Assembly: GCA_008080565.1 (NCBI GenBank)
Contig: VIKE01000008.1
Location: 115,709 to 179,708, forward strand
Length of the DNA: 64,000 bases
Source of the DNA: Rhodocyclaceae bacterium
Lineage (GTDB): Bacteria; Pseudomonadota; Gammaproteobacteria; Burkholderiales; Rhodocyclaceae
Direction of reading: 5' to 3'
The notes under the pieces are model-generated. The model was not told the origin of the DNA. It worked only from the letters and a program-made list of their open reading frames with translations, and searched no databases. The position numbers were made by a program, and so were the translations under genes. Shown here in pieces: positions 6,928 through 40,098 of the stretch. The stretch's first letter is position 1, and each line of letters opens with the position of its first letter.

Positions 6928-8151
6928 TCAGCCACGATCCGATGGTGAAAAACCATCACGCGTTGGAAAATCCGCCATCGGAACGTCCGTCCGCCACGTC
7001 CACACCATCGTTTTTTCCGCTCTGATCGCCTTCTCTTTCGCATCCCGTTCTCCGGGAGCCATAAAGGGGCTCACCACATGTAGCGGCACCGGTGACGGCC
7101 CGGCATCCAGTAGTAGCGCGTTCGGAAATGGCGCGGCACTGCGGGCATCGTAGCGTAGCGGCTTGATGAAGCGACGCTGCTGCGCGACCAGGGCACCAAT
7201 CAGTGGAAGTTCATGCACACCCTCGATCGGTATCCACTGCTCGCTGGTCAGCATCAGGCTTACCGAATCAATCTCGTAGGTGTGTTCACGGCGGGCACAG
7301 ATCAGTGCGGCCATGACCAGCCTCACCGAGTGGCGAATGTCGGCATCGCGGGCCTCGAACAGTGGGGCGAAGACCCGTTCTATGCGTTCCCACGTACGGC
7401 CGGCGATCAGTAAGGGCGCATCCGGCATGTGGCGAATCCAGACCCGGTGCCCCTGGGCTGTTGCCTCGCTGGCCTTGTATTCGCCGATGACAACGGCCAG
7501 CGGCGCCTGGCCGTCGCGCGGGCCCAGCACCGCCAACTTCTCGCGGCGACGCTGGGCGGCTTCGGCCTTGCCGGACTCGCTGAAGGGCTCAGGGAGATAC
7601 AGGCGCTCGGCCAGTGGCACGCCCTTGACCGTGATTTCCTCGGCTGCCTCCAGAAGGTATTTACGCAGCACTCCCTGGTTACGCTTGCCGGCCATAGCCG
7701 GGCTCCAGCGGTTGAAGCCGGCGCGCTCGAACAGGAAGTGCATCAAGGCACGTAGCGACATGCGCCGCTGCGGCACGCCCACCTCTGCCACTTCCTGTGT
7801 TTCACCGCGCGGCACGCTGTGCCCGATCACCCGCATCCACGGAAAATCCACGCGCAGTTCGACCCGTCCCGGTTCAGTTTCCAGCACCACTTCGCCCAGC
7901 AGTTCACCGAGGCCCGATTGCCGGGCTTCCGGCTCGTAGGAAGGACAACCGGGATGGTGGGCGCTGCCGCTGTCCGGCATGCGTTTGACCACGAACAGGC
8001 TGTGGCGCGCCACATACATTTCCACCCCACCCGGCATGCACAAACAGCGTGGCCGTTCGAGGGTGTCATGAACCTGGGCCAAAGCGTCCTGCAACTGCGG
8101 ATCATCAGCGCCGATGACGCGGCCCTTAATGACAAAGCGCTGGAGGTCCAT
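6928..8151 (-). CDS. DUF1173 family ICE protein
   Basis: A 407-residue protein when started at MDLQRFVIKG (ATG at 8151), which follows the upstream gene by 16 bases; the 47-residue extension in the ORF track overlaps that gene and is unlikely. The cysteine-rich N-terminal segment RCLCMPGGVEMYVAR...HHPGCPSYE looks like a small metal-binding module and matches my recollection of DUF1173, a family of unknown function encoded on integrative elements. The rest is soluble and alpha/beta-like. Its place beside an integrase-like gene supports an ICE origin. Confidence 0.7.
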   Translation of the reverse strand: MDLQRFVIKGRVIGADDPQLQDALAQVHDTLERPRCLCMPGGVEMYVARHSLFVVKRMPDSGSAHHPGCPSYEPEARQSGLGELLGEVVLETEPGRVELRVDFPWMRVIGHSVPRGETQEVAEVGVPQRRMSLRALMHFLFERAGFNRWSPAMAGKRNQGVLRKYLLEAAEEITVKGVPLAERLYLPEPFSESGKAEAAQRRREKLAVLGPRDGQAPLAVVIGEYKASEATAQGHRVWIRHMPDAPLLIAGRTWERIERVFAPLFEARDADIRHSVRLVMAALICARREHTYEIDSVSLMLTSEQWIPIEGVHELPLIGALVAQQRRFIKPLRYDARSAAPFPNALLLDAGPSPVPLHVVSPFMAPGERDAKEKAIRAEKTMVWTWRTDVPMADFPTRDGFSPSDRG

Positions 8152-8167
8152 GGCGGTCAGACCTGAC

Positions 8168-9121
8168 TTAAACCAGTTCGTCGAGCAGTTCAGCCAGTGT
8201 CGGCTTCGGCCTGGGTAGCAGTTCCCGCACCGCGCTGCGCTCGCCGATACCCAGGATGGCGCCAACCTGATCCTCGTCGGCACCCCGCTCATACATCCGC
8301 GACATCACTGTCAGACGTGCCGACTGGGCGCTCAGGCCCTTGAGTTCGGCGTAGCGGAACAACTTGCGGTAAATCTCCAGCAGAGCCCGACAAACAAAGC
8401 GATTCTGCCCTGGCTCGCCGTTATTTGAAGCAATTCGGTAGGGTTCGCCGCTGGGCGACAGAAACAAGCGGCTGTCCGCACGTAACCCGCGGTAGCAATC
8501 TGACGCCCCGACGCCATGCCCGCACTCGCAGCGCTCTCGAAAATAGGCCGTCAGCGCCTCATCGAGCCGGCAACTACTGAAATAGAGTGGCCTCAATTTG
8601 CCGTTGATCGCCGCCTCGGCACGCAATTCCGATTCACGGCACACACTGCCGTCGGCATGCAGGTAGTCGCGCACCTCAAGCCGGGCGATTTCGAGAGGGC
8701 GCAGGCCGGTGGCAAACAGCATGTAGTAGAGGGCAAGGTCGTGCCAGGTGCGACTGGTACGGCCCTTGATGCGCACCGCGCCCTGGGCTACCTCTGCCGC
8801 TGACAATACGCGCGCCGGGCGGGAACCGACCGGCGGCAGCGGCTCAAATCCCCCCAGCGCGACCAGGATGGCCTCGCGATGCAGGCGCAGCCGGCGCACA
8901 AATGCGGCCCCCTCTTCCTTGAGACCGTCCACGCCCACGACCTGGGTGAGTTGGACGGCAACTGACTTGATGCGCCGCTCCACCGCCGTGCGCGAAATGC
9001 CGAAGCGCACGGCTACCGTCTCGTAGGTATCGCCGCCGATGACGGCACGCAGCATCTCAACCGATTGCAATGCGTTTTCGTGGTGCTTGCTGACCTCCTG
9101 GCTGTCTTGCATGACCTGCAT
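8168..9121 (-). CDS. tyrosine-recombinase-like protein with N-terminal HTH, probably catalytically degenerate
   Basis: A 317-residue protein. Residues about 20-50 (TYETVAVRFGISRTAVERRIK) form a clear helix-turn-helix. The C-terminal half is integrase-like: YYMLFATGLRPLEIARLEVRDYL contains the first catalytic Arg. The usual HxxR box and the terminal Tyr segment are not evident; the corresponding stretch reads SARLTVMSRMYERGADEDQVGAILGIGE. It may be a DNA-binding accessory or a derived recombinase rather than the ICE integrase. It probably forms an operon with the DUF1173 gene downstream. Confidence 0.65.
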   Translation of the reverse strand: MQVMQDSQEVSKHHENALQSVEMLRAVIGGDTYETVAVRFGISRTAVERRIKSVAVQLTQVVGVDGLKEEGAAFVRRLRLHREAILVALGGFEPLPPVGSRPARVLSAAEVAQGAVRIKGRTSRTWHDLALYYMLFATGLRPLEIARLEVRDYLHADGSVCRESELRAEAAINGKLRPLYFSSCRLDEALTAYFRERCECGHGVGASDCYRGLRADSRLFLSPSGEPYRIASNNGEPGQNRFVCRALLEIYRKLFRYAELKGLSAQSARLTVMSRMYERGADEDQVGAILGIGERSAVRELLPRPKPTLAELLDELV

Positions 9122-10598: not shown

Positions 10599-11360
10599 CT
10601 AGTCGCCAACCGAAGGCGGGGCGCTTTCCAAGGCTTCGGATAATCGTGAGTCGGAGTTCATCTCTACCGGTTCTACCTCCCCCTCGCCTTCCACCCTGGG
10701 TTCGTCCGCACCCTCTACCACGACGGCCTCTTGCCGGCCATCCGCGCTTCGGCCTCCGCCATCGCGCGCGCCCATGGCGTTCATTCGCCGCCGCAGCCCC
10801 ATGGCAAAATTACGCGCGCCATTGGCGATGTCGCGCACTTGCCGTTTGAGGCTCGCCCGCTGGATATCCACTGCCTGGGTGGTGATCACTTCGTGGATTT
10901 CCAGGGTCTGCAACAATGGCATCAACTGATCGAGTTTGCCCAGCACCTCGAGAAAGCGGCGGCCGCTGGATGACAGCACATGAACTTCGACATCCAGCGG
11001 CACCGTGTCGTAGGTCGCCGTGCTGGTGATGGCGTGGGCTTTGAAGAGCACTTCTGCACCATCAATGGCCTTGTTCAAGTTCTCGCTTACCATGTCCATC
11101 TGGGTGCGGATGGTGTCCTCGATCTTGGCCACGTCCTCATGGTCCAGCCGGGTACGAGCAATAACCGAGATGAAGTGCGTGTTGAGTTGCAGGGTATTGA
11201 ACAGCCGCGCGAAGAAACGCTTGCCCTCGGCGCTAGTGAAGCGCGTAGGCATTTTCAGGCTGGCAGCTTCAACCCGCCGAAAATCAGCCTTGGCCTCCTT
11301 GGCGAGAATGCGGGCGTTGACGCCACCCTCATCTATCTTGACGATCTGGATCTCCGACAT
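10599..11360 (-). CDS. DUF1845/AcaB-like ICE protein
   Basis: A 253-residue soluble protein. The core RFTSAEGKRFFARLFNTLQLNTHFISVIARTRLDHEDVAKIEDTIRTQMD (about 41-90) followed by KAIDGAEVLFKAHAITSTATYD resembles DUF1845 proteins of conjugative elements, some of which are annotated as AcaB-family regulators. The C-terminus is acidic and low-complexity. It is divergent from the rightward ICE genes. A regulatory role is inferred only from the family name and from the FlhDC-like activator pair elsewhere in the window. Confidence 0.55.
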   Translation of the reverse strand: MSEIQIVKIDEGGVNARILAKEAKADFRRVEAASLKMPTRFTSAEGKRFFARLFNTLQLNTHFISVIARTRLDHEDVAKIEDTIRTQMDMVSENLNKAIDGAEVLFKAHAITSTATYDTVPLDVEVHVLSSSGRRFLEVLGKLDQLMPLLQTLEIHEVITTQAVDIQRASLKRQVRDIANGARNFAMGLRRRMNAMGARDGGGRSADGRQEAVVVEGADEPRVEGEGEVEPVEMNSDSRLSEALESAPPSVGD

Positions 11361-11905
11361 GCCGTGCTCCTCGAAATACCGGGTTCGCAGCGATCTTCCG
11401 CAGAGGGCAGTTCATTCGCCACCGGAAATGGCCGACGCTTGAGGGGCCTTTCGGCATCGGGGCCGATTTGAGTGGATTTTTGGATTGACCAGGCCAATTC
11501 CGGCCACTACCTTTACGTCATGCAGTAGCTGGCCCTGCATTCAAACAAGGCAAGCCTTGGAGTTATCCGTTTGTCGCACACCGCTGAGTTTTGCCGGTGC
11601 GGCAAATGTCAGTCCTGCCGGTAGCGATTCCGCTGCCGATCACACCTGTGTCATTGAGGCAAGTTTTCGAGGCAATGGCGCGGCATTTCTGTTCCCGTTT
11701 CCCGGACGCCCTTCCCCCGAAAGCCTTCCTCGATCGGTCGCTGGCATACCGATCACGGCGGTTCGCACCGCCCGTTCAAGCCAGCCCTGGAGTTTTTTCT
11801 TCCCTTAACACCGTTCCGCCCCTGGCGGTTCGACAATTTCTCACCCCACGGGGGCATCTGCCCCTGCCGTGGTGCGCGCTGCCTCCATTTTTCCTGGAGC
11901 CAACG
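11361..11905 (+). other. divergent intergenic region
   Basis: About 545 bases between the leftward DUF1845-like gene and the rightward small-ORF operon. No coding frame is convincing; the track ORF extending upstream to 11591 lacks a ribosome binding site. It probably holds divergent promoters, including the candidate at 11485-11513. Confidence 0.5.
11485..11513 (+). promoter_or_regulatory. candidate sigma-70-like promoter
   Basis: TTGACC and TACCTT are separated by 17 bases, with the palindrome-like GGCCAATTCCGGCC in the spacer. The -10 match is weak. It would read toward the 11906-13129 small genes. Confidence 0.25.
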
Positions 11906-12484
11906 ATGCTGAATCAGAGCGTATCCCCCAAAGTTTCCCATCCCACGCCCGTGGGCCCCGTCTTCCCGCCCATCTTTCCCTCTTGGGCAGCCACCTCGCG
12001 TCACCGCCCGGCAGCGATTCCCGATCACGCCGCACTTGAGCAGATGCTCGACGACGCCGAGGCACCGGTCGAATGGAGCGAGGAAGACATCGTCTTCCTG
12101 CACTGGCGCCTGCTTGCGGAAGTCAGCCACCTGGCCGACCCCGCGACGCCCCTCGAAGAGAAGTTCGACACCTTGCGCTGGGTGTTCAGCGAGCGAGAAA
12201 AGGACGGTCTGCCGTTCTCTTTTGTCAGTTGCCTGCGCGTGGTCGGCTGCAGCCCGCTGTCGCCCATCGCCTATTGCGGATTGGTCGACGCCGAAGAAAT
12301 CCGCGACCACATTCGCCACAGCCTCAAAGCCTGGTTCAACGCCTCGCTTGAGCGTTATCCAGACTGGGTGCGCGACGCCGTCGTCCACAACCCCGCCTGG
12401 ATCGAAGCACGACTCGCCAAGAACCCCCAGTGGATCAACGAGCAGATCAAGCGGATGTCCGTGCAAGGCGACCTGTTCGCCTAA
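11906..12484 (+). CDS. unrecognised ICE-associated protein, 192 residues
   Basis: Started at ATG 11906 (MLNQSVSPKV), which has GGAG just upstream; the track's earlier start would add 105 residues of unlikely composition. The N-terminal ~30 residues are proline-rich, then come acidic helical segments (VEWSEEDIVFLHWRLLAEVSHL) and a C-terminal repeat-like DWVRDAVVHNPAWIEARLAKNPQWINEQIK. It is soluble with no membrane segment. No family recognised. It heads a run of small genes ending with a GHKL ATPase and a primase. Confidence 0.7.
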   Translation: MLNQSVSPKVSHPTPVGPVFPPIFPSWAATSRHRPAAIPDHAALEQMLDDAEAPVEWSEEDIVFLHWRLLAEVSHLADPATPLEEKFDTLRWVFSEREKDGLPFSFVSCLRVVGCSPLSPIAYCGLVDAEEIRDHIRHSLKAWFNASLERYPDWVRDAVVHNPAWIEARLAKNPQWINEQIKRMSVQGDLFA

Positions 12485-12546
12485 TCCCGCCCAACTTTTT
12501 GGGCTTGCTGCCAACGCGCAAGCCCACCCTATTTGAAGGAGTCGTC

Positions 12547-12801
12547 ATGAGCACTTTCAAAGATGTCCTCTGCCTACTGGCGATCTTCATCCTCTACGGC
12601 ATCGCCGGACGTCTGGATTATGAAGACGCGGTTGGGCTGGAACAGATTCGCCAGGAACGGCTGCCTGCCGCTTGCCTGACAGATCCGCCGGCGGGCCACG
12701 AGGCACAGGCGCGGATCAACGAACAACGCGTTGATCTACCAGGCAAGGACATGGACCAACTGCCCGCCAATGGCCTGCCCTGCCCCCCGTCCGAGCTTTA
12801 A
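12547..12801 (+). CDS. small single-pass membrane protein, unrecognised
   Basis: 84 residues starting at ATG 12547 with a good GAAGGAG site seven bases upstream. The N-terminus TFKDVLCLLAIFILYGIAGRLDY is one hydrophobic helix, followed by a polar, proline-containing tail. No family recognised. It lies 62 bases after the preceding gene and 10 before the next, consistent with one operon. Confidence 0.6.
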   Translation: MSTFKDVLCLLAIFILYGIAGRLDYEDAVGLEQIRQERLPAACLTDPPAGHEAQARINEQRVDLPGKDMDQLPANGLPCPPSEL

Positions 12802-12811
12802 GGAGAGCGCC

Positions 12812-13129
12812 ATGTATGCCACAACGTATCTCGCCGGACGCGCGGCGCCCCTGCTGACCGTCCAGGCCCCCGAAGACATCGAGTTCCTCGTCAAGGAAAG
12901 CGAAGTCCTCACCGGCCGATCCGGTCGTATTTTTGTCATCGCCAGTGCCGACTGGCTGACTTACCGGGTGCACTGGCACCCAATCGGTCTGAAGGTCGAG
13001 CGTCTCGACGCGACCGGCCAGATCCTGAGCACTAGCTACCTGCTGCCCAAAGAATTCCGCCGGCACAGCCTGATGGAAGCCCTGACAGCCGGCCAACTGT
13101 TTACCCCGCCCGTCCGCCGTCTCGGCTGA
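12812..13129 (+). CDS. unrecognised small soluble protein, 105 residues
   Basis: Start ATG 12812 is preceded by AAGGAGAG, so this is the likely start rather than the track's 12731. The sequence (TVQAPEDIEFLVKESEVLTGRSGRIFVIASADWLTYRVHWHPIG) looks like a compact alpha/beta fold with no membrane segment. No family recognised. It is part of the small-gene run ahead of the GHKL ATPase. Confidence 0.6.
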   Translation: MYATTYLAGRAAPLLTVQAPEDIEFLVKESEVLTGRSGRIFVIASADWLTYRVHWHPIGLKVERLDATGQILSTSYLLPKEFRRHSLMEALTAGQLFTPPVRRLG

Positions 13130-13155
13130 CGGGTCTTCTTCCCCCCTTGGCGGGC

Positions 13156-13173
13156 TAGTCCCGTCGGGACTGG
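13156..13173 (+). repeat. short intergenic hairpin
   Basis: AGTCCCG-TCGGGACT-type perfect inverted repeat in the gap before the GHKL ATPase gene. It has no T-tract, so it may affect mRNA stability or translation of the downstream start. Confidence 0.35.
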
Positions 13174-13199
13174 TGCCGCCTGCATTCATGGAGCACATC

Positions 13200-14813
13200 A
13201 TGCAGATACAGGTTCGAATCAACGAGGAAGGCGCCTTGCGCAACCAGCGCTATGCCTTCACCGACCGCTTCACACTCGTCTCCGAGTTGTTGCAAAACGC
13301 CCGCCGTGCTGGGGCGACGCACATCGAAGTCGACTACGACGCCGGCACACAGATCCTGGTGGTCCAGGATGATGGCGGCGGTCTCGACGACTTCCAGAAA
13401 CTTCTGAGTTTCCACGAGTCGGGCTGGGATGATGCCACCAGTGCCGAGGAGCGCCCTTTCGGGGTCGGCTTCTCAAAGTGCCTCTATGCCGCGACGCGCT
13501 GCATCGTCGCCTCCCGCCATCAACGAGTCGATATGGACACCGCGGCGGCACTGGCCAAGGCGGCCATCGATGTCGAGCCCATAACCGAGGCGGTGACCGG
13601 CACCCGGATAGAACTGCACGGGGTCGATCTGCCCGACCTAGGCAATCGCATCGAGACCTTGTGCCTGGGTTTTCCGGTGGAGGTGCTGTTCAACGGTAAG
13701 CCGCTGACGCGCTGCTTTGCCGTCGCGAACCTGGCAACGATGGCGAGCCCGATGGGTACGGTTCATCTGACCGGGACGCGGGACGGCAAGTTCAGTTACA
13801 ACGCCCTGGTCTTTCTGCAAGGCTTCTGCGTCATGAAACCAAACTACGGCTCGTTCGACGAGGCCAATGTCGTACACCTGGATTCGCGCCAATTCATGGC
13901 GCGCCTGCCGGATCGCGACAAGTTGATCGACGAAGACGTCCAGAAAAAACGCATTGACGCGGAGTTGGCCGCCTGCTGGCGGCTGACGCTGGAAGTTGCC
14001 AAGGCCCAGCTTTCACCAGAGCGCTTCGTCGCAATCTACTACGCAGCAATGCGCGCCTGGGGACAGTTGGATCTGCTCAACGACCTCGATGTACTGCCGG
14101 TCGAGTTATTCGATGAAATCGTCGACTATCCGATCCAGGATGACGACCGCAGCTATGTCCGGCAAGTCGCCACGGCACCCACCCGGCAAACTGTCGAGAG
14201 CGGCGCGGTGACTCTGGTTTCCCTCGACTGGTTGGGCGACGACAACGCGGCACGCTGGATGCTGGCCCGGGCCAAAGGCTATCTAATCTTCGACTGGATA
14301 GGCCTGAGTTCCAATCACTGGGCATGGCGCCACGTGCGTTTCCTGGATCAGGAAACGGTTCAGGTCGAAGCGGTCTCCGAACAAATCCGCGTCCAGTTGG
14401 AAGGACGCTGGGTATGGCCCACCGTAATCCTATGCGACTCAGTGATCCTGCGAAGTACCAAGGATGTCGCCGAAATCACCGACGCGGGGGTCTGCCACGG
14501 AGACGTGCTGTACATCCCGGCCGGCGAGACCTCCGGTGAATCGGTGCGACAGGCCTCGTCCTTCATCGACGAGAACGATCAGTTCCTCGCCGCTGACCTG
14601 GACGCCGACCGCGATGCACTGACCGATTTGATCCGTCGCCTGCGTTCGGTCGATCCGGTGCAGACATTGGACTCGCTGTTGCAGGAGTTGCGGCTGGGCC
14701 GCTATCCCCTGCTCCATGGCAAGGCTTTCCAGGTCACCGTCGGCGTAGGCATAGCCCCCAGCTATTCGGTAGCCCTGCTCACCGAAGAAGGAGCATGCCA
14801 TGCAGAATCGTGA
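13200..14813 (+). CDS. GHKL (Hsp90/histidine-kinase-like) ATPase of an ICE, 537 residues
   Basis: Started at ATG 13200, where GGAG sits seven bases upstream; two upstream ATGs are also possible. The ATP-binding fold is visible as the N-box SELLQNARRAGA (28-39), G1 QDDGGGLDD (56-64) and the G2-like FGVGFSKCLY (87-96). There is no histidine phosphoacceptor domain, HAMP or receiver, so this is not a sensor kinase. The layout is closer to Hsp90/MutL-type ATPases. The ~440-residue C-terminal part is unrecognised. It overlaps the primase gene by 14 bases, suggesting a shared role in element DNA processing. Confidence 0.75.
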   Translation: MQIQVRINEEGALRNQRYAFTDRFTLVSELLQNARRAGATHIEVDYDAGTQILVVQDDGGGLDDFQKLLSFHESGWDDATSAEERPFGVGFSKCLYAATRCIVASRHQRVDMDTAAALAKAAIDVEPITEAVTGTRIELHGVDLPDLGNRIETLCLGFPVEVLFNGKPLTRCFAVANLATMASPMGTVHLTGTRDGKFSYNALVFLQGFCVMKPNYGSFDEANVVHLDSRQFMARLPDRDKLIDEDVQKKRIDAELAACWRLTLEVAKAQLSPERFVAIYYAAMRAWGQLDLLNDLDVLPVELFDEIVDYPIQDDDRSYVRQVATAPTRQTVESGAVTLVSLDWLGDDNAARWMLARAKGYLIFDWIGLSSNHWAWRHVRFLDQETVQVEAVSEQIRVQLEGRWVWPTVILCDSVILRSTKDVAEITDAGVCHGDVLYIPAGETSGESVRQASSFIDENDQFLAADLDADRDALTDLIRRLRSVDPVQTLDSLLQELRLGRYPLLHGKAFQVTVGVGIAPSYSVALLTEEGACHAES

Positions 14814-15810
14814 GTACGAAGCCCGTATCGAAGCGGTCAAGCAGCGTGCCCATGGCCGATGGACGGAGATACTGGCGAGCCTGGGGATCGATGAACGCAT
14901 CCTCAAGCGGCGCAATCTCCCTTGCCCCTTGTGCGGCGGCACGGATCGCTTCCAGTACACCGACAAGTTCGGCGAAGGGAACTATCACTGCCGCAGTTGC
15001 GGCCCGGGCGGCGGCTTCAAGTTGCTGCAGGCGCTCCAGGGCATTGATTTCAACACGGCATTGCGTGATGTCGAGCGTTGCCTGGGGATGATGCCGGTGA
15101 CGGCCCCCGTAAAGGTCAACGAGCCTTCGGCTGAGCGCATGCAGAAACTGGCCCAGCGTATCTGGCACGAGGCCAAACCGGTGACGGTTGGCGATGAAGT
15201 CGATCGCTACCTGACCAGTCGTGGCGTGGCGCTGCCGGTCTATCCGAAGGTGCTGCGTTTCCATCCGGCGCTGGGCTACTACCAGAAGGATGCCGACGGC
15301 AAATCGCACAAGGTCGCCGAGTATCCAGTCATGCTGGCCTGCATCCAGGGCGAGGATGGCCATGCAGTCACCTTGCACCGAACCTACCTCCAGGACGGCG
15401 CCAAACTGGCCGTACCAGATGCGAAGAAGGTGCTGTCTTCCGGCATCAACGGGGCCGCGGTTCGTCTCTTCGAGGCGACCGAGGACCTGGGGATCAGCGA
15501 AGGCATCGAGAAGAGCATCGCACTGTATCTGGCGACGGGACGGCCGTTCTGGGCCGGCTTGAACGCAGGCAATCTGGAGAAGCTGTGGATTCCCGACTCG
15601 GTTCGCCGGGTCTGGATCTACGCCGACAACGATGCCGACGGCGACTTCGCCGGCCAGGCCGGTGCCTTCGTACTGGCCCGGCGCCTGAAGCACGAAACGC
15701 ATCGCACAGGCAACCGTGACGTGCAGGTGTTTGTGCCCAAGGACGCTGGCGTGGACTGGAGCGATCTGTGGCTACGCCGCGTGCAGGCCTTGTCTGCACG
15801 GGCAGCTTGA
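14800..15810 (+). CDS. zinc-ribbon/Toprim primase-like protein
   Basis: A 336-residue protein. The N-terminal primase zinc ribbon is PCPLCGGTDRF...YHCRSCGPGGGF (Cys42, 45, 64, 67). A Toprim-type domain follows: EDLGISEGIEKSIALYLATGRPFWAGLNAGNL, then RRVWIYADNDADG with the acidic metal-binding pair. This is the arrangement of phage P4-alpha-like and plasmid primases, without an attached helicase. It presumably primes replication of the element after transfer. It overlaps the GHKL ATPase gene and is followed by a terminator-like hairpin. Confidence 0.85.
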   Translation: MQNREYEARIEAVKQRAHGRWTEILASLGIDERILKRRNLPCPLCGGTDRFQYTDKFGEGNYHCRSCGPGGGFKLLQALQGIDFNTALRDVERCLGMMPVTAPVKVNEPSAERMQKLAQRIWHEAKPVTVGDEVDRYLTSRGVALPVYPKVLRFHPALGYYQKDADGKSHKVAEYPVMLACIQGEDGHAVTLHRTYLQDGAKLAVPDAKKVLSSGINGAAVRLFEATEDLGISEGIEKSIALYLATGRPFWAGLNAGNLEKLWIPDSVRRVWIYADNDADGDFAGQAGAFVLARRLKHETHRTGNRDVQVFVPKDAGVDWSDLWLRRVQALSARAA

Positions 15811-15819
15811 GCAACCAGG

Positions 15820-15856
15820 GGGTGCGCCGCAGCAAGGCGCGCGCACCCGCCTTTTT
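15820..15856 (+). terminator. rho-independent terminator after the primase gene
   Basis: GGGTGCGC...GCGCACCC stem with a ~13-base loop followed by GCCTTTTT, ten bases after the primase stop. A second stem-like pair (AGTGGC/GCCACT) follows directly. Confidence 0.65.
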
Positions 15857-16091
15857 AGTGGCGCTGCAGTGACATGCGGTGCCACTGAAAAGGTCATTTG
15901 CCCGACTGGTAGTTGTCACACCAGGCGATACCCCACGGTATCGCGAAGACAGCCCTGGAGTTCCGGTGCGATTCACCTCGCGCCCTATCTGGACCGGCAT
16001 TCGCCGGTCCGTCATCGACCCTGGCGGGGATGCGCATCCCCACCCGTGGGCAATGCCGTCTCCGCTTTTCTTTTCCGACAAGGAGATTGCT

Positions 16092-17134
16092 ATGAAAAAC
16101 GGACGTTCTCTGAGCGCCAACTACTTTCGAAGAAGGACTTGATCGTGCCCTCGGCACTGGTCCGCCATGCCACCGACGAGCAGGGCGAAACCCGCCTGAT
16201 CATTGAGGAAGGCAGCAACCCGGTACAGTATGGCGTCACGCCCCTGGCGCGGCGCCAGTTGGCGGACAAGCTGAAGATTCCGTATGCCTATTTCGAGCGC
16301 ATGCGTGAAGAGCTGCCCACCTTGCTCGATCGCAATGTAAACACCTGGCTGCAAAATGAGGAAGAGCGGCGCATGCTGCGTACCCTGGATGGTCAGGTAC
16401 GTGCGGTGTTGTCGGATCGCTACCGCCGCCTGGACAACTTCGACCTGGCCGAGAGCGTGCTGCCCATCCTGCAGCAGTTGCCTGAGGTCCGTTTCGAATC
16501 GGTCGAACTGACTGAGACCAAGATGTATCTGAAGTGCATCACGCCGCGCCTGAAATATGAGATGGCACCCGGTGATGTTGTGCAGGCCGGTGTCGTGATC
16601 TCGAACTCGGAGGTCGGCCAGGGCACGCTGTCAGTGCAGCCACTGCTCTTCCGGCTGGTGTGCAGCAATGGCCTGATCGTGCCTGATCGCTCATTGCGCA
16701 AGACGCACGTCGGTCGCGCGCTCGGTGGCGAAGATGAACGCATCCAGGTGTACCAGGACGACACCCTGCGCGCCGACGACAAGGCCTTTTTCCTGAAAGT
16801 ACGCGACGTAGTGCAGGCGGCCGTATCGGAAGCCACCTTCCGCCAGACGGCGCAGAAGTTGCAGAAGACGCTCAATATTCCGCTGGTGGGCGATCCGGTG
16901 AAGACGATTGAGGTGCTGGCCCAGCGCTACCTGCTGAACGAAGGCGAACGGGCCGGCGTACTGCGCCATCTGATCGCCGAGGGGGAGTTGTCGGGCTACG
17001 GTCTGGTCAATGCGGTAACGCACTACAGCCAGGAGGTCGAGGACTACGACCGCGCGACGGAATTCGAAGCCTTGGGCGGTCGGCTGATCGACTTGTCGGC
17101 CCACGAGTGGAAAGGACTGGCCGAAGCGGCCTGA
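16092..17134 (+). pseudogene. DUF932 family ICE protein, 5' end disrupted
   Basis: The conserved DUF932 body is intact in one frame: KKDLIVPSALVRHATDEQGE, YAYFERMREELPTLLDRNVNTWL, LSDRYRRLDNFDLAESVLP and LFRLVCSNGLIVPD. The expected start, ATG 16092 with AAGGAGATTG upstream (MKNGRSLS), is in a different frame and reaches TGA after 16 codons. The peptide joins naturally as MKNGRSLS...RQLLSKKDLIV, implying a small deletion with frameshift near 16114. In-frame fallback starts are TTG 16139 and GTG 16145, giving ~330 residues. DUF932 proteins are common on plasmids and ICEs; function unknown. Confidence 0.75.
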
Positions 17135-17188: not shown

Positions 17189-17540
17189 TACTCAAAAGCA
17201 CCTTGATAACCCTGATTTTTCTGCAAATCGATTTCCGTGATTGACGAGCACACAAAATGTAGCAAGGCAGCAGGCCCCGCAATAGGGAAACAAATTGGAA
17301 AATTCGGCCACCGGCAGCAGCGGGCCCATAACCGCCTGATGTCAAATAAAAACCTTCCGGCGGTTTAGTGATTAGATAGCTGCCGCTCAGCGGCATCAAC
17401 TGTCGCCCGTTAATCCGCGATAGCAATGGGTGGAGATTACTATCGAAAAGGAATCAAACATATCCAAGGCTTTCACTGTGAACTTATTTTGACTCTCTCA
17501 AACTAGGCAACAAGGGATTTCCTGTAGAATAACATGCAAT
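17189..17540 (+). other. gene-free region upstream of the first B12 riboswitch
   Basis: About 350 bases of AT-richer sequence than the surroundings, with no credible ORF. It presumably holds the promoter of the cobalamin operon, but no clean -35/-10 pair with standard spacing was found. A TAGAAT (17525-17530) is a possible -10. Confidence 0.4.
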
Positions 17541-17727
17541 TTAGGTGCCTTGCCTCACGTCTGTGGGGCGGGTGAAACGGGAAGCCGGTGACGTTCGAGC
17601 CAACAACTCAACCATTCCGGCGCAGCCCCCGCTGCTGTAAGCCTGACGAATTTGCCCTACGCCACTGTGTCCGCACGGGAAGGTTGGCAAACGAGGATGA
17701 AGGCGAGCCAGAAGACCGGCCTAAATC
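17541..17727 (+). promoter_or_regulatory. cobalamin riboswitch ahead of cbiM
   Basis: The conserved core elements appear in order: GGGTGAAACGGGAAGCCGGTG, CAGCCCCCGCTGCTGTAA, CCACTG, GGGAAGGTTGGC, and the B12 box AAGGCGAGCCAGAAGACCGGCC. About 145 bases of leader remain before the cbiM ATG and would hold the expression platform. With adenosyl- or methylcobalamin bound it should lower expression of the uptake/biosynthesis operon. Confidence 0.92.
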
Positions 17728-17871
17728 AAATGATGTGCCATTCCCCGGGGTGACGGGAGCGGTTCTGTTGATTTGCGCCTGTCTTTTCCGTTTCCGGCCG
17801 TCTCTTCCGATCTGCATTTTTCATAGCCCCAGCCTGGCACTTTTGGCCACTTCTCGCTGTGGGAGAGAACA

Positions 17872-32192: not shown

Positions 32193-33920
32193 TTGTTGAC
32201 CGAAGAATGGGGCACTTTACCTCCCGTGCAACAGCGCTATGCAGCCATGGCCGTAACACCAATCCCTGTCAGTTCCTACCCTGCCTCCGACCCGGGCTTT
32301 GCCGCCCTGTCAATCGATGAACTGCTGACCAGCGAAGCAGACCTGATCACGCGCATCAAGCTATGCTACGGCGCTGACCGAGAGAGTTTCGAGCGTGACG
32401 TGCTGACGCTGGTCCGGCGTTACGCCGCCTGCGTGCATCTGCTGCCGGCAACCCCCGACAATTACTTCAGCAAACCCGGCGGTCTGCTGCGACTCGGCCT
32501 CGAGACTGCCTTCTTCAGTCTGCAGGGCACCGATGCACACATCTTTTCGGGACGTATGAGCATCTCGGCACGTCGGCAGTTGGAGCCGCGCTGGCGCCAT
32601 GCAACATTCATCGCAGGGTTGTGCTGCGAACTGCATCGTTTGCTGAGTCATGTCATCGTCACCGATACCGTCGGAGAAGCGTGGCCAGCCTTCCTGCTAC
32701 CCTTGTCTGACTGGCTGGCGGACAGAGGCGCGGAGCGATATTTTCTGCGCTGGCGACCACAGGCCGTCGAGGCGCGGGGGCTGGGGCTGTTTGCACTGCC
32801 CCATGTAGTGTCCCCGGCGGTTATGGCCGATCTCTCCGAAGGCAACACGGTGATCGTGCCCCACTTGCTGGCCAGCATCAGCGGCATTCCGAGTTATCGC
32901 GAGCACAATATCCTCGACGAACTGGTCCGCCGCTCGCTGGCTCTGGTCATCGACCGCAACCTCGCTGCCAGTGCCGACCGCTACGGCTCACCGCAATACG
33001 GTTCGCATCTAGAACGCTATCTGGTCGATGCCTTGCGGCGACTGGCCAGCGGCAATTCGGCCTGGGTGCCCAATCGCGAGAAGTCTCGCCTGTGGTTCGG
33101 GCAAGACGGGCTATTCCTGATCTGGCCCGGCGCTGCAGAGGATATCCAGAAGCTGCTTGAGGCTGACCAATTGGCCGGCATTCCCAAGGCACCGGAAACA
33201 ATACTGGAACTACTGCTGGCCGCTGGCGTGTTCGAGGCGGCGAACGGTCGATCGACCTGGCAAATCAGGCCACCAGGTACCAAGACCCCTTTGGAAGCCG
33301 TCAAACTCTCGGCCCCTGGCATCCTTCTCACGGGTGTCGATCCCGCCCCCGTGGCCTTACCCGATACGCTGGAATGCAAGTTGCAACCTGCCCCTGACGC
33401 AAGCGCGCCGCGGACAACAGCCTCCGAACCTCCACCCTCCCTCATCAGTAGCAGTTCCCAGTTATCGCTGATACCCCAACCCGAGCCGCCCGCCGTAAAC
33501 GAAGCGCACATGGCATCAGGCGAGGAAATATCTCTCACTCAGACATTGGAGCCCATTTCGGCACCACTCCCCACAAGTTTCGCCTTACATGCCCCCTTGC
33601 GCCTGAACCCTGTCGTGCGTGACGCCCTGAGCAATGCCATTCGCACACTCAACGACGGCCAAGGTCCGGCCATGGTGTGTACCGTCGCCCAGGGCGTGTT
33701 CGTGCCTCTGGATGAGTTCGTCCGGCGCGGCGTCCAACCCTCTCTCGCCATGCGTACGCTCGCCGAAACGAACATGCTGGTGAAGCAGGGCCGCAACGGT
33801 CCGCCGACCCTGTCGCGCGAATTCAACGGCATCGTCACCATCGGCATCGTGCTCGACCCGCGTTACGTAAGTGGCCTTGATCTGACCGCTTTTGCTGCGC
33901 CAGCAGCGGAGCAAAGCTGA
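32193..33920 (+). CDS. traI: MobH-type (TraI_2) conjugative relaxase
   Basis: Up to 575 residues; the start is uncertain (TTG 32193/32196 or ATG 32247). The TraI_2 signature is HLLPATPDNYFSKPGGLLRLGLETAFFSLQ...LEPRWRHATFIAGLCCELHR, followed by WPAFLLPLSDWL and RYFLRWRP. The middle is Pro/Ser-rich (about 390-450). The C-terminal ~110 residues (PLRLNPVVRDALSNAIRTL...PTLSREFNGIVTIGIVLDP) form the DUF1528-like winged domain seen in this family. It nicks oriT to begin transfer. It is contiguous with traD. The CELHR variant of the metal site deserves comparison with relatives. Confidence 0.85.
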   Translation: MLTEEWGTLPPVQQRYAAMAVTPIPVSSYPASDPGFAALSIDELLTSEADLITRIKLCYGADRESFERDVLTLVRRYAACVHLLPATPDNYFSKPGGLLRLGLETAFFSLQGTDAHIFSGRMSISARRQLEPRWRHATFIAGLCCELHRLLSHVIVTDTVGEAWPAFLLPLSDWLADRGAERYFLRWRPQAVEARGLGLFALPHVVSPAVMADLSEGNTVIVPHLLASISGIPSYREHNILDELVRRSLALVIDRNLAASADRYGSPQYGSHLERYLVDALRRLASGNSAWVPNREKSRLWFGQDGLFLIWPGAAEDIQKLLEADQLAGIPKAPETILELLLAAGVFEAANGRSTWQIRPPGTKTPLEAVKLSAPGILLTGVDPAPVALPDTLECKLQPAPDASAPRTTASEPPPSLISSSSQLSLIPQPEPPAVNEAHMASGEEISLTQTLEPISAPLPTSFALHAPLRLNPVVRDALSNAIRTLNDGQGPAMVCTVAQGVFVPLDEFVRRGVQPSLAMRTLAETNMLVKQGRNGPPTLSREFNGIVTIGIVLDPRYVSGLDLTAFAAPAAEQS

Positions 33921-35828
33921 ATGCTGGTGCGCCGCTACGAAATGCCCTGGCGCCGTGCTTATGAACTCTATGCCGGTATCGCCTGGTGGCTGGCGCTGCT
34001 CTATTTCGTGGGGGTAGGTGTAGTCGGCGCTCTTCCCCGCCAACTAGCACTGCCTCTGGCACTCGTCTGCTTTGCTATGGGCGTACGGCGGATCACCCAG
34101 GCCTTGCACATACTGATCTTGCGCGCGTCGCTGGGCGGACGCAGCATCGAAGTCATTGGCACGAATGCATTGGCCAAATGGTGCAAGGATCCGGCCTCCG
34201 TATTCATCGGATTCGGCTTCGAATGGCAGCCCGTCCATGCGCAGCGGCTCTATGAACTCGCCAAGATCGACTACCGGGAATACGCCGTGTCGCCACGCTT
34301 GCTAGAACTTTTGGGCTACGGCAGCAAACCACAGCCGGACGCCGAGATCGGTTTGCCCTACATCCACGGCGTTGAGCCAAAGGAAGGCCCCTTGCACCGG
34401 CCTCTACAGAACTTCGAGGGTGGCACGCTGCTGGTCGGCACCACCCAGTCCGGCAAGGGGGTCGCGCTGGCCAATCTGATCACCCAGGCGATCCGGCGCG
34501 GCGATGTGGTGATTGTCATCGACCCGAAGAACAGCCGCCGGTTGAAGCGTGTCGTCGAGCGTGCCTGCACTGATTACCGGGAGCCCGATACCTTCCTTGA
34601 GTTCCACCCGGCCTTCCCGGAACGGGGCGTGCGACTCGATTTTACTTTCAACTGGCAGAAACCCACCGAGATCGCTTCGCGCATCCAGTCCATCATGCCG
34701 CCGGACACGGCCGGGGCCTTCTCGGCTTTCGGCTGGGATGCGGTCAACGTCGTGGTACAGGGGCTGGTCGAAATTGAAGAGCGACCTAACCTGATGAAAC
34801 TGACCAAGTACATTGAGGGCGGCATCGATCCCGTGCTGGAGAGTTCGCTACGCCGCTACTTCGACCAAACCCTCGGGACCGATTGGCGTGAATTGCCCAA
34901 CATGAAGAAACTGTTGCATGAGGCCCAGCGCGGCAACCTCAAGCGACCGTCCGAGGCGGCTAGCGCCGATCTGATGGCCTTCGTCGCCTACTACGAGCAC
35001 CACGTCGCCCAGAACCTACGCAACAAGGTGATCGATGCTCAGGTACGGACCTTTCGCCACAACCGTGAGCATTACCAAAAGATCACCGCCAACCTGCTCC
35101 CTATCCTGTCGATGCTGACCTCCGGCGATCTGGGGCGCAGTTTATCTCCCGACCCCTTCGATGCAGACGATGCGAGGCCGATCATGAACTTCGAGAAAAT
35201 CGAGCGTGCCGGCCATGTGTTGTACATGTGCCTCGATTCGCTTCCCGATCCGTCCGTGGCTTCAGCCATCGGCGCCTTGGCGCTGGCCGACCAAGCGGCG
35301 CGTGCCGGCATGCGCTACAACCTGGGCATTTACCGGCGCATCGCGCTATTCGTCGATGAAGTGGCCAATGTGATCAATCAGCCGCTGATTGAAATCCTCA
35401 ACAAAGGTGCTGAGGGCGGCATCTTCACCACCTGCGCGATGCAGACCCTGGCCGACCTGGCCAAGCGGTTGGGTAGCGAGGATGCAGCACGCATGGCGCT
35501 GGGCAACCTCAACAACCTGATCGCACTACGCACCAAGGACCGGCCGACCCAGGACTTCGTCGTCGAAACCTTCGGCAAGACCGCGATTCATACGGTACGG
35601 GTAGGTCTGAGTCATGGTTCCGATGCCCACCTGGGCGACTTCTCGTCGACTTACTCGACTCAACTCTCTGAAAGCCTGGAGGAGATGGTGCCGGCCGATA
35701 TCTTGGGCAAGTTACCCAATCTCCAGTATTTCGCATCAGTGTCCGGCGGCCGGATCATCAAGGGGCGGTTTCCAATCATCGATCCCGATGCGGAGACGCC
35801 ACAAACGCCCACGAAGGTGGCCGCGTGA
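33921..35828 (+). CDS. traD: TraD-type type IV coupling protein
   Basis: 635 residues. Two N-terminal transmembrane helices (about 17-36 and 43-58) precede an AAA+ ATPase domain with Walker A GTTQSGKG (173-180), VVIVIDPKNSRRL and the Walker B-like RRIALFVDEVANV. It hexamerises at the inner membrane and pumps the relaxase-bound strand into the secretion channel. It starts immediately after the relaxase stop and overlaps the DUF4400 gene by four bases. Length and motifs are complete, so this gene looks functional. Confidence 0.92.
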   Translation: MLVRRYEMPWRRAYELYAGIAWWLALLYFVGVGVVGALPRQLALPLALVCFAMGVRRITQALHILILRASLGGRSIEVIGTNALAKWCKDPASVFIGFGFEWQPVHAQRLYELAKIDYREYAVSPRLLELLGYGSKPQPDAEIGLPYIHGVEPKEGPLHRPLQNFEGGTLLVGTTQSGKGVALANLITQAIRRGDVVIVIDPKNSRRLKRVVERACTDYREPDTFLEFHPAFPERGVRLDFTFNWQKPTEIASRIQSIMPPDTAGAFSAFGWDAVNVVVQGLVEIEERPNLMKLTKYIEGGIDPVLESSLRRYFDQTLGTDWRELPNMKKLLHEAQRGNLKRPSEAASADLMAFVAYYEHHVAQNLRNKVIDAQVRTFRHNREHYQKITANLLPILSMLTSGDLGRSLSPDPFDADDARPIMNFEKIERAGHVLYMCLDSLPDPSVASAIGALALADQAARAGMRYNLGIYRRIALFVDEVANVINQPLIEILNKGAEGGIFTTCAMQTLADLAKRLGSEDAARMALGNLNNLIALRTKDRPTQDFVVETFGKTAIHTVRVGLSHGSDAHLGDFSSTYSTQLSESLEEMVPADILGKLPNLQYFASVSGGRIIKGRFPIIDPDAETPQTPTKVAA

Positions 35829-36580: not shown

Positions 36581-40098
<3,518 letters not shown>

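What the first reader, a model, noticed from the sequence alone, without database searches (positions are those of the whole stretch)
11906..15810. Small-ORF/GHKL-ATPase/primase operon of unknown purpose
Three unrecognised small proteins (one a membrane protein) precede a 537-residue GHKL ATPase with an unknown C-terminal part, which overlaps a Toprim primase gene. GHKL ATPases without kinase domains act in chaperones, MutL/topoisomerases, MORC proteins and some defence systems. An ICE-borne pair of GHKL ATPase and primase could be a replication/restart module or an anti-phage system.
Basis: partly seen in the sequence, partly recalled or inferred. Interest (0 to 1): 0.55.

Follow-up and report, generated by a model that had tools for sequence, protein, structure and literature searches.

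The report
Hsp90-like ATPase beside ICE primase
A mobile DNA element carries, in one operon with its DNA primase, an optional ATP-driven protein built like the front two-thirds of the chaperone Hsp90 and of phage T4's RIIA protein; it belongs to a little-studied family shared by conjugative elements, large plasmids and giant phages, probably helping incoming element DNA get established.

Summary
The operon is real: A (192 aa), B (84 aa, one membrane helix), C (105 aa), a 537-aa GHKL ATPase and a Zn-ribbon/Toprim primase whose start overlaps the ATPase stop by 14 nt. It sits in a MobH conjugative element with an SXT-type TraD. Gene order is conserved in 14 database loci, all from Betaproteobacteria or MAGs labelled beta-/gammaproteobacterial or Pseudomonadota, and the ATPase is under purifying selection (dN/dS 0.10-0.15). 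The ATPase is not a topoisomerase or kinase. Its N-terminal GHKL domain is followed by an Hsp90/RIIA-type middle domain with an invariant arginine (PDR239) that corresponds to Hsp90 'NVSRExLQ' and RIIA 'PSREAL'. The last ~200 residues match nothing known. Relatives (27-36% identity) lie on large plasmids, and one is in a jumbo-phage-like contig. The ATPase-primase pair is not obligate: sister elements keep A, C and primase but lack the ATPase, and a slot between C and primase holds the ATPase, a ribonucleotide reductase, both or neither. Best reading: an optional ATP-gated clamp (chaperone-like or RIIA-like) serving early DNA processing or establishment of the element. Stand-alone anti-phage defence is unlikely but not excluded.

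The parts
10599..11360 (-). AcaB/DUF1845-like gene, divergent from the operon
   Evidence: Pfam AcaB E=0.0033, below cut-off; homologue in Piscinibacter annotated DUF1845; conserved in position in L001-L003, L005-L012 and L014
11361..11905 (.). Conserved divergent leader upstream of A, with copies of AGCCCTGGAGTT at 11553 (one mismatch) and 11783
   Evidence: 86% mean column identity in 7 loci; motif conserved in leaders
11906..12484 (+). Gene A, 192 aa; C-terminal QGDLFA resembles the beta-sliding-clamp binding consensus QLxLF
   Evidence: consensus QLxLF from PMC4549789
12547..12801 (+). Gene B, 84 aa, one likely membrane helix (read from the sequence); fastest evolving of the set
12812..13129 (+). 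Gene C, 105 aa, small conserved protein; homologues also in elements that lack the ATPase
13200..14813 (+). GHKL ATPase, 537 aa: GHKL domain ~1-140, Hsp90/RIIA-type middle domain ~145-300 with PDR239, unidentified C-terminal part ~310-537 with invariant HW373-374
14800..15810 (+). Zn-ribbon + DUF7146 + Toprim primase, 336 aa, start overlaps ATPase stop by 14 nt
15811..16091 (+). Conserved, strongly structured non-coding leader between primase and DUF932 gene
   Evidence: DNA-fold z-score -6.35 for 15811-15950; 10 of 34 pairs with compensatory double changes in 12 loci
16092..17134 (+). DUF932 gene, next operon; in the window a 22-bp deletion near its 5' end breaks the frame relative to relatives
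32193..33920 (+). MobH relaxase of the element
   Evidence: NF041494 E=7.4e-100
33921..35828 (+). SXT-type TraD coupling protein
   Evidence: TIGR03743 E=3.1e-210

Best explanation
The operon is part of the DNA-processing backbone of a MobH (SXT/IncC-related) integrative conjugative element. Its primase makes primers on element DNA, and protein A may tether this to the host sliding clamp through its C-terminal QGDLF tail. Into that operon one clade has recruited an optional ATPase of the GHKL class, built from a GHKL domain and an Hsp90/RIIA-type middle domain. By analogy with Hsp90 it would work as an ATP-gated dimeric clamp: ATP binds in the GHKL pocket (E29/N33, D57xGxG, G88xG), R239 of the middle domain contacts the gamma-phosphate, the clamp closes on a client, and hydrolysis reopens it. 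The family-specific C-terminal part would choose the client, most likely a component of the DNA-synthesis/establishment machinery assembled on newly transferred DNA. Shown: sequence, motifs, fold class, order, conservation, optional presence. Inferred: dimerisation, ATP hydrolysis, client, timing in the recipient, clamp tethering by A.
For: Fold: the AF2 model (mean pLDDT 73.9, pTM 0.62) matches Hsp90 N+middle domains first in PDB (4ivg, E=2.7e-12, 476 columns; all top 50 are Hsp90 family), and RIIA proteins are prominent in the viral library. Motifs: E29, N33, D57, G59, G61, G88, G90 and P237-D238-R239 are invariant in 25 diverse members, and E29, N33, D57, G59, G61, G88, G90, P237 and R239 stay invariant when further IMG/VR relatives are added. 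The middle-domain motif corresponds to 'LPLNVSREILQ' of HtpG and 'LDIAPSREALS' of T4 RIIA. Hsp90 R380 as gamma-phosphate contact: PMC12280139. Backbone role: conserved order, TraD/MobH context and 14-nt overlap. DNA-metabolism company elsewhere: the Toprim primase is the only recognisable neighbour shared by GHKL loci of several unrelated plasmids; dnaN, RadA, error-prone polymerase, UvrD and RecT lie near individual relatives; UvsX and DNA polymerase near L024, RNase H and SbcC near L022. Purifying selection.
Against: The ATPase is dispensable to the primase: A-C-Toprim (Janthinobacterium) and A-B-C-nrdJ-Toprim (G666) lack it. Many distant relatives have no primase beside them. Whole-protein TM-scores to Hsp90 are modest (mostly 0.35-0.45). 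Profile comparison to HtpG is confident only over the first ~176 columns, and the PDR/SRE correspondence to HtpG rests on motif and domain position, not on that alignment. The C-terminal part was modelled badly (pLDDT 53) and found no fold match. The client and any effect on transfer are pure inference.
Confidence: 0.42

Rival explanations
1. It is an RIIA-like counter-defence or takeover factor: made early in the recipient, it blocks a host defence or stabilises the host response so the incoming element survives, much as T4 RIIA overcomes exclusion by a resident prophage.
For: RIIA proteins are among the best viral fold matches; the middle-domain PSRE/PDR motif is shared; profile comparison to RIIA aligns full length, though weakly (prob 62, E=7.6e-5); relatives occur in jumbo-size phage contigs and on large plasmids; presence is sporadic. 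PMC7824862 lists RIIA as GHKL ATPase plus variable C-terminus and counts it as counter-defence.
Against: No RIIB-like partner recognised; no PHROG match to RIIA; the tie with the primase operon is not typical of RIIA; the fold match is better to Hsp90.
Confidence: 0.25
2. It is an anti-phage defence system (GHKL sensor/effector) carried by the ICE.
For: GHKL ATPases occur in some defence systems; ICEs carry defence cargo; weak PADLOC match to TmtA over the GHKL domain only (E=5e-4).
Against: No known effector or nuclease domain seen; fixed position in the transfer backbone rather than in a cargo hot-spot; overlaps the primase gene; relatives in phages themselves; no system match.
Confidence: 0.08
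3. It is a topoisomerase- or MutL-like DNA strand-manipulating ATPase paired with the Toprim protein as a split enzyme.
For: MutL is among the sequence matches; a GHKL + Toprim pairing is the topoisomerase theme; genes are adjacent.
Against: The Toprim protein is a Zn-ribbon primase of phrog_510, not a topoisomerase subunit; no DNA-gate or MutL endonuclease domain; fold matches rank Hsp90 first; the pair is not obligate.
Confidence: 0.07
4. It is an Hsp90-type chaperone needed to fold the primase itself, hence the overlapping genes.
For: Hsp90-like N+middle domains; conserved 14-nt overlap.
Against: Primase homologues 50-52% identical are kept in elements without the ATPase; most ATPase relatives are not next to a primase.
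Confidence: 0.1

Closest known systems
Hsp90 / HtpG / TRAP1
   Same: GHKL domain with E-N, DxGxG and GxG motifs; middle domain with conserved arginine in a P/N-x-R-E/D-x-L setting; best PDB fold match over N and middle domains
   Different: 537 aa against ~620-700; no detectable Hsp90 C-terminal dimerisation domain; no Pfam Hsp90 match; MGE-borne and sporadic; different C-terminal part with invariant HW
T4-type RIIA
   Same: GHKL plus a similar middle-domain arginine motif (PSREAL); variable C-terminus; carried by mobile elements
   Different: No RIIB neighbour recognised, no PHROG match, N-box is ELLQNARRAGA rather than RELxxNxxDAH, shorter, operon with primase
MutL / type II topoisomerase GHKL subunits
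   Same: GHKL domain, similar HMM scores over residues 25-140
   Different: No endonuclease or DNA-gate domain; arginine middle-domain motif instead of transducer lysine (the latter from general knowledge)
SXT/R391 and IncA/C MobH elements
   Same: MobH relaxase, TIGR03743 TraD, DUF4400, AcaB-like gene
   Different: TraD only ~40% identical to the TraD of common enterobacterial MobH plasmids; window element carries the A-B-C-ATPase-primase operon and a 317-aa integrase-like protein with DUF1173
Phage/plasmid Toprim primases (phrog_510)
   Same: Zn ribbon, DUF7146, Toprim_3
   Different: No fused helicase; 336 aa stand-alone

Membership tests
GHKL ATPase superfamily | Bergerat ATP site: E..N box, DxGxG, GxG | tested here: met
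   Invariant in 25 diverse members; PF13589 above cut-off
GHKL ATPase superfamily | ATP binding and hydrolysis | not testable with these tools
   needs purified protein
Hsp90 | Middle domain with gamma-phosphate arginine after the GHKL domain | tested here: met
   PDR239 invariant; Foldseek N+M match; contact with ATP itself not testable here
Hsp90 | Hsp90 C-terminal dimerisation domain / curated Hsp90 family match | tested here: not met
   No Pfam or NCBIfam Hsp90 match; C-terminal model poor and without fold hits
T4-type RIIA | RIIA family profile match | tested here: not met
   No PHROG match; no tblastn match in 50,697 phage records
T4-type RIIA | RIIB gene adjacent | tested here: not met
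   Neighbours are C and primase; no RIIB-like hit
T4-type RIIA | GHKL + PSRE-type middle-domain motif | tested here: met
MutL / topoisomerase | DNA-gate or endonuclease domain | tested here: not met
   No such domain found
Known anti-phage defence systems (PADLOC) | Match to system genes | tested here: not met
   Only weak partial matches
Zn-ribbon Toprim primase | CxxC...CxxC ribbon plus Toprim acidic residues | tested here: met
   PF08273, PF13362 above cut-off; sequence shows CPLC...CRSC, SEGIEK and DNDADGD
MobH SXT-type conjugative element | MobH relaxase and SXT TraD | tested here: met
Beta-clamp binding protein (gene A) | Terminal QLxLF-type motif | tested here: inconclusive
   QGDLFA, QADLFA, QADLFS, QTSLF; EGDLFA in two; fits QxxLF but position 2 departs from consensus; binding not tested

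The most novel reading that the evidence does not exclude
A third branch of Hsp90-architecture ATPases, beside Hsp90 and phage RIIA, is spread over MobH ICEs, large plasmids and jumbo phages. It serves as an early 'establishment clamp' that remodels host replication or defence proteins on incoming DNA, plugged as an optional cassette between small protein C and the primase.
Probability: 0.28. Interest if true: 0.68.

Novelty: new variant of a known kind. Interest (0 to 1): 0.45.

Why it matters
RIIA is one of the oldest genetic loci in biology, and its biochemistry is still poorly understood. Finding the same GHKL plus arginine-middle-domain plan, optional and linked to a primase, in conjugative elements gives a new system in which presence/absence pairs already exist in nature. 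It makes the question 'what does an Hsp90/RIIA-type clamp do for a mobile element?' testable by transfer assays. It also shows that the C-primase interval of these ICEs is a cassette slot (ATPase, B12-dependent ribonucleotide reductase, both or neither).

Tried and rejected
Defence system: PADLOC scan negative. Topoisomerase/MutL pair: rejected on domain content and fold rank. Direct RIIA membership: no PHROG or phage-record match. Conserved small partner of the ATPase across plasmids: flanking small ORFs are mostly unrelated; C homologues only occur in the ICE-type loci. C-terminal domain identity by separate structure prediction: model too poor, no fold hits. Phylum-wide profile search returned mostly HtpG and MutL; only four genomes had matches stronger than 1e-15. 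Literature searches on the domain combinations found no description of this operon or family in the library. Sigma-70 promoter scan of the leaders gave nothing.
Full report
OBSERVATION. Pfam places HATPase_c_3 at residues 27-111 of the 537-aa protein and nothing else. The primase has Zn_Ribbon_Prim, DUF7146 and Toprim_3 and is a phrog_510 primase. A and C match no family; B has only a weak match to two unnamed PHROGs.

ELEMENT. Downstream cargo is followed by a MobH relaxase (NF041494), an SXT-type TraD (TIGR03743) and DUF4400. Upstream, on the minus strand, lie an AcaB/DUF1845-like gene, an AlpA-like gene, an integrase-like gene and DUF1173. The element is thus a MobH ICE related to SXT/R391 and IncA/C; its TraD is only about 40% identical to that of the common enterobacterial MobH plasmids.

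CONSERVATION. A genome scan gave 14 relatives of the ATPase at 58-92% identity, from Betaproteobacteria including Dechloromonas, Achromobacter, Accumulibacter and Acidovorax, and from MAGs labelled beta-, gamma- or Pseudomonadota. A, B, ATPase, primase and DUF932 keep order wherever the contig reaches; C is missing in L012. ATPase and primase overlap by 14 nt in 14 of 16 loci, by 11 and 1 nt in the other two. dN/dS of the ATPase is 0.10-0.15; B is the least constrained.

OPTIONAL CASSETTE. The pair is not obligate. Of 399 genomes of the same order, 21 have an SXT-type TraD; 17 of these have a primase homologue, only 3 an ATPase homologue. An element with 61% identical TraD (G666, L085) reads A-B-C-nrdJ-primase. 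Janthinobacterium plasmids with 66% identical TraD read A-C-primase-DUF932-...-MobH-TraD. A profile of the ATPase finds nothing in these two stretches. The Piscinibacter plasmid reads A-x-C-ATPase-nrdJ-primase. So the interval between C and primase is a slot that holds the ATPase, a B12-dependent ribonucleotide reductase, both or neither. This TraD-based sample of close elements is small (G606 and Piscinibacter with; G666 and two Janthinobacterium without).

WHAT THE ATPASE IS. Distant relatives (27-36%) occur on large plasmids of Methylomonas, Geoalkalibacter, Rhodanobacter, Vibrio, Paraburkholderia and others. IMG/VR contigs of 48-208 kb carry relatives; one of them, L022, has phage structural genes and RNase H around it. 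None was found in 50,697 annotated phage records. E29, N33, D57, G59, G61, G88, G90, P237, D238 and R239 are invariant in 25 members, as are H373 and W374. With the model from alignment A3 (pLDDT 73.9) the best PDB matches are all Hsp90-family N+middle domains, and RIIA proteins are prominent among viral models. Profile alignment with HtpG is strong over columns 20-176 (prob 98). With RIIA it is weak but full length, and it places PDR239 on the RIIA 'PSREAL' motif. The matching motif in HtpG is 'NVSREILQ'; there the correspondence rests on motif and domain position, since the forced full-length HtpG alignment was unreliable past the first 176 columns. In Hsp90 that arginine (R380) contacts the gamma-phosphate and stabilises the closed clamp (PMC12280139). 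I therefore read the protein as GHKL + Hsp90/RIIA-type middle domain + family-specific C-terminal part. The C-terminal part could not be identified. The alignment used for modelling was shallow, and whole-chain TM-scores are modest.

GENE A. The last residues are QGDLFA in most loci, QADLFA or QADLFS in Piscinibacter and Janthinobacterium, QTSLF in G666 and EGDLFA in two. This fits the beta-clamp binding consensus QLxLF, usually C-terminal (PMC4549789), except at position 2. It is a lead only.

MECHANISM. Best-supported model: a clamp-type ATPase acting on proteins of early DNA processing or establishment of the element. RIIA-like counter-defence is the main rival; the two could be one thing. 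Defence against phage is least likely. Client, timing and dimerisation are inferred, not shown.

KNOWN OR NEW. GHKL/Hsp90/RIIA are known kinds. No family model in Pfam, NCBIfam, PHROGs or PADLOC describes this protein beyond the GHKL domain, and I found no paper on it. I rate it a new variant of a known kind.

Noticed in passing
window 15811-16091: Non-coding stretch between primase and DUF932 folds far better than shuffles (DNA z -6.35 for 15811-15950), with compensatory changes in 10 of 34 predicted pairs over 12 loci. It could be a terminator plus a structured leader, a single-strand origin or an ssDNA promoter.
   Followed up: partly
window 11553, 11783, 15951: 12-mer AGCCCTGGAGTT (two exact copies, one with a mismatch) in the leaders of both operons. 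Present in the leaders of most L001-L014 loci, absent from L017, L085 and L100.
   Followed up: partly
window 16092-16145: The DUF932 gene lacks 22 bp near its 5' end compared with four relatives, shifting the frame.
   Followed up: partly
L085 about 11110-13900 (G666:C5) and G666:C5:149749-152616: A long CRISPR array (28-bp repeat, 60-bp period, type I-F look) lies directly behind the primase of a sister ICE, with a I-F Cas3 gene several kb further on.
   Followed up: partly
L085 6879-9827; L017 13949-16411: Adenosylcobalamin-dependent ribonucleotide reductase in the C-primase slot of two sister elements. The window's own ICE instead carries a cobalamin riboswitch (17526-17738) ahead of cobalt-transport-like genes.
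   Followed up: no
G000:C48:1982-3589 (-): Second, 34% identical ATPase copy in the same genome with its own Toprim primase ~3 kb away, arranged as on Azospira and Sulfuricystis plasmids.
   Followed up: partly
window 36581-39743 (-): A CzcA-type efflux pump gene is split into two overlapping ORFs, so probably frameshifted.
   Followed up: no
window 6928-9121 (-): DUF1173 gene overlapping an integrase-like 317-aa gene, conserved as a pair in the ICE clade; possible unusual integration module.
   Followed up: no
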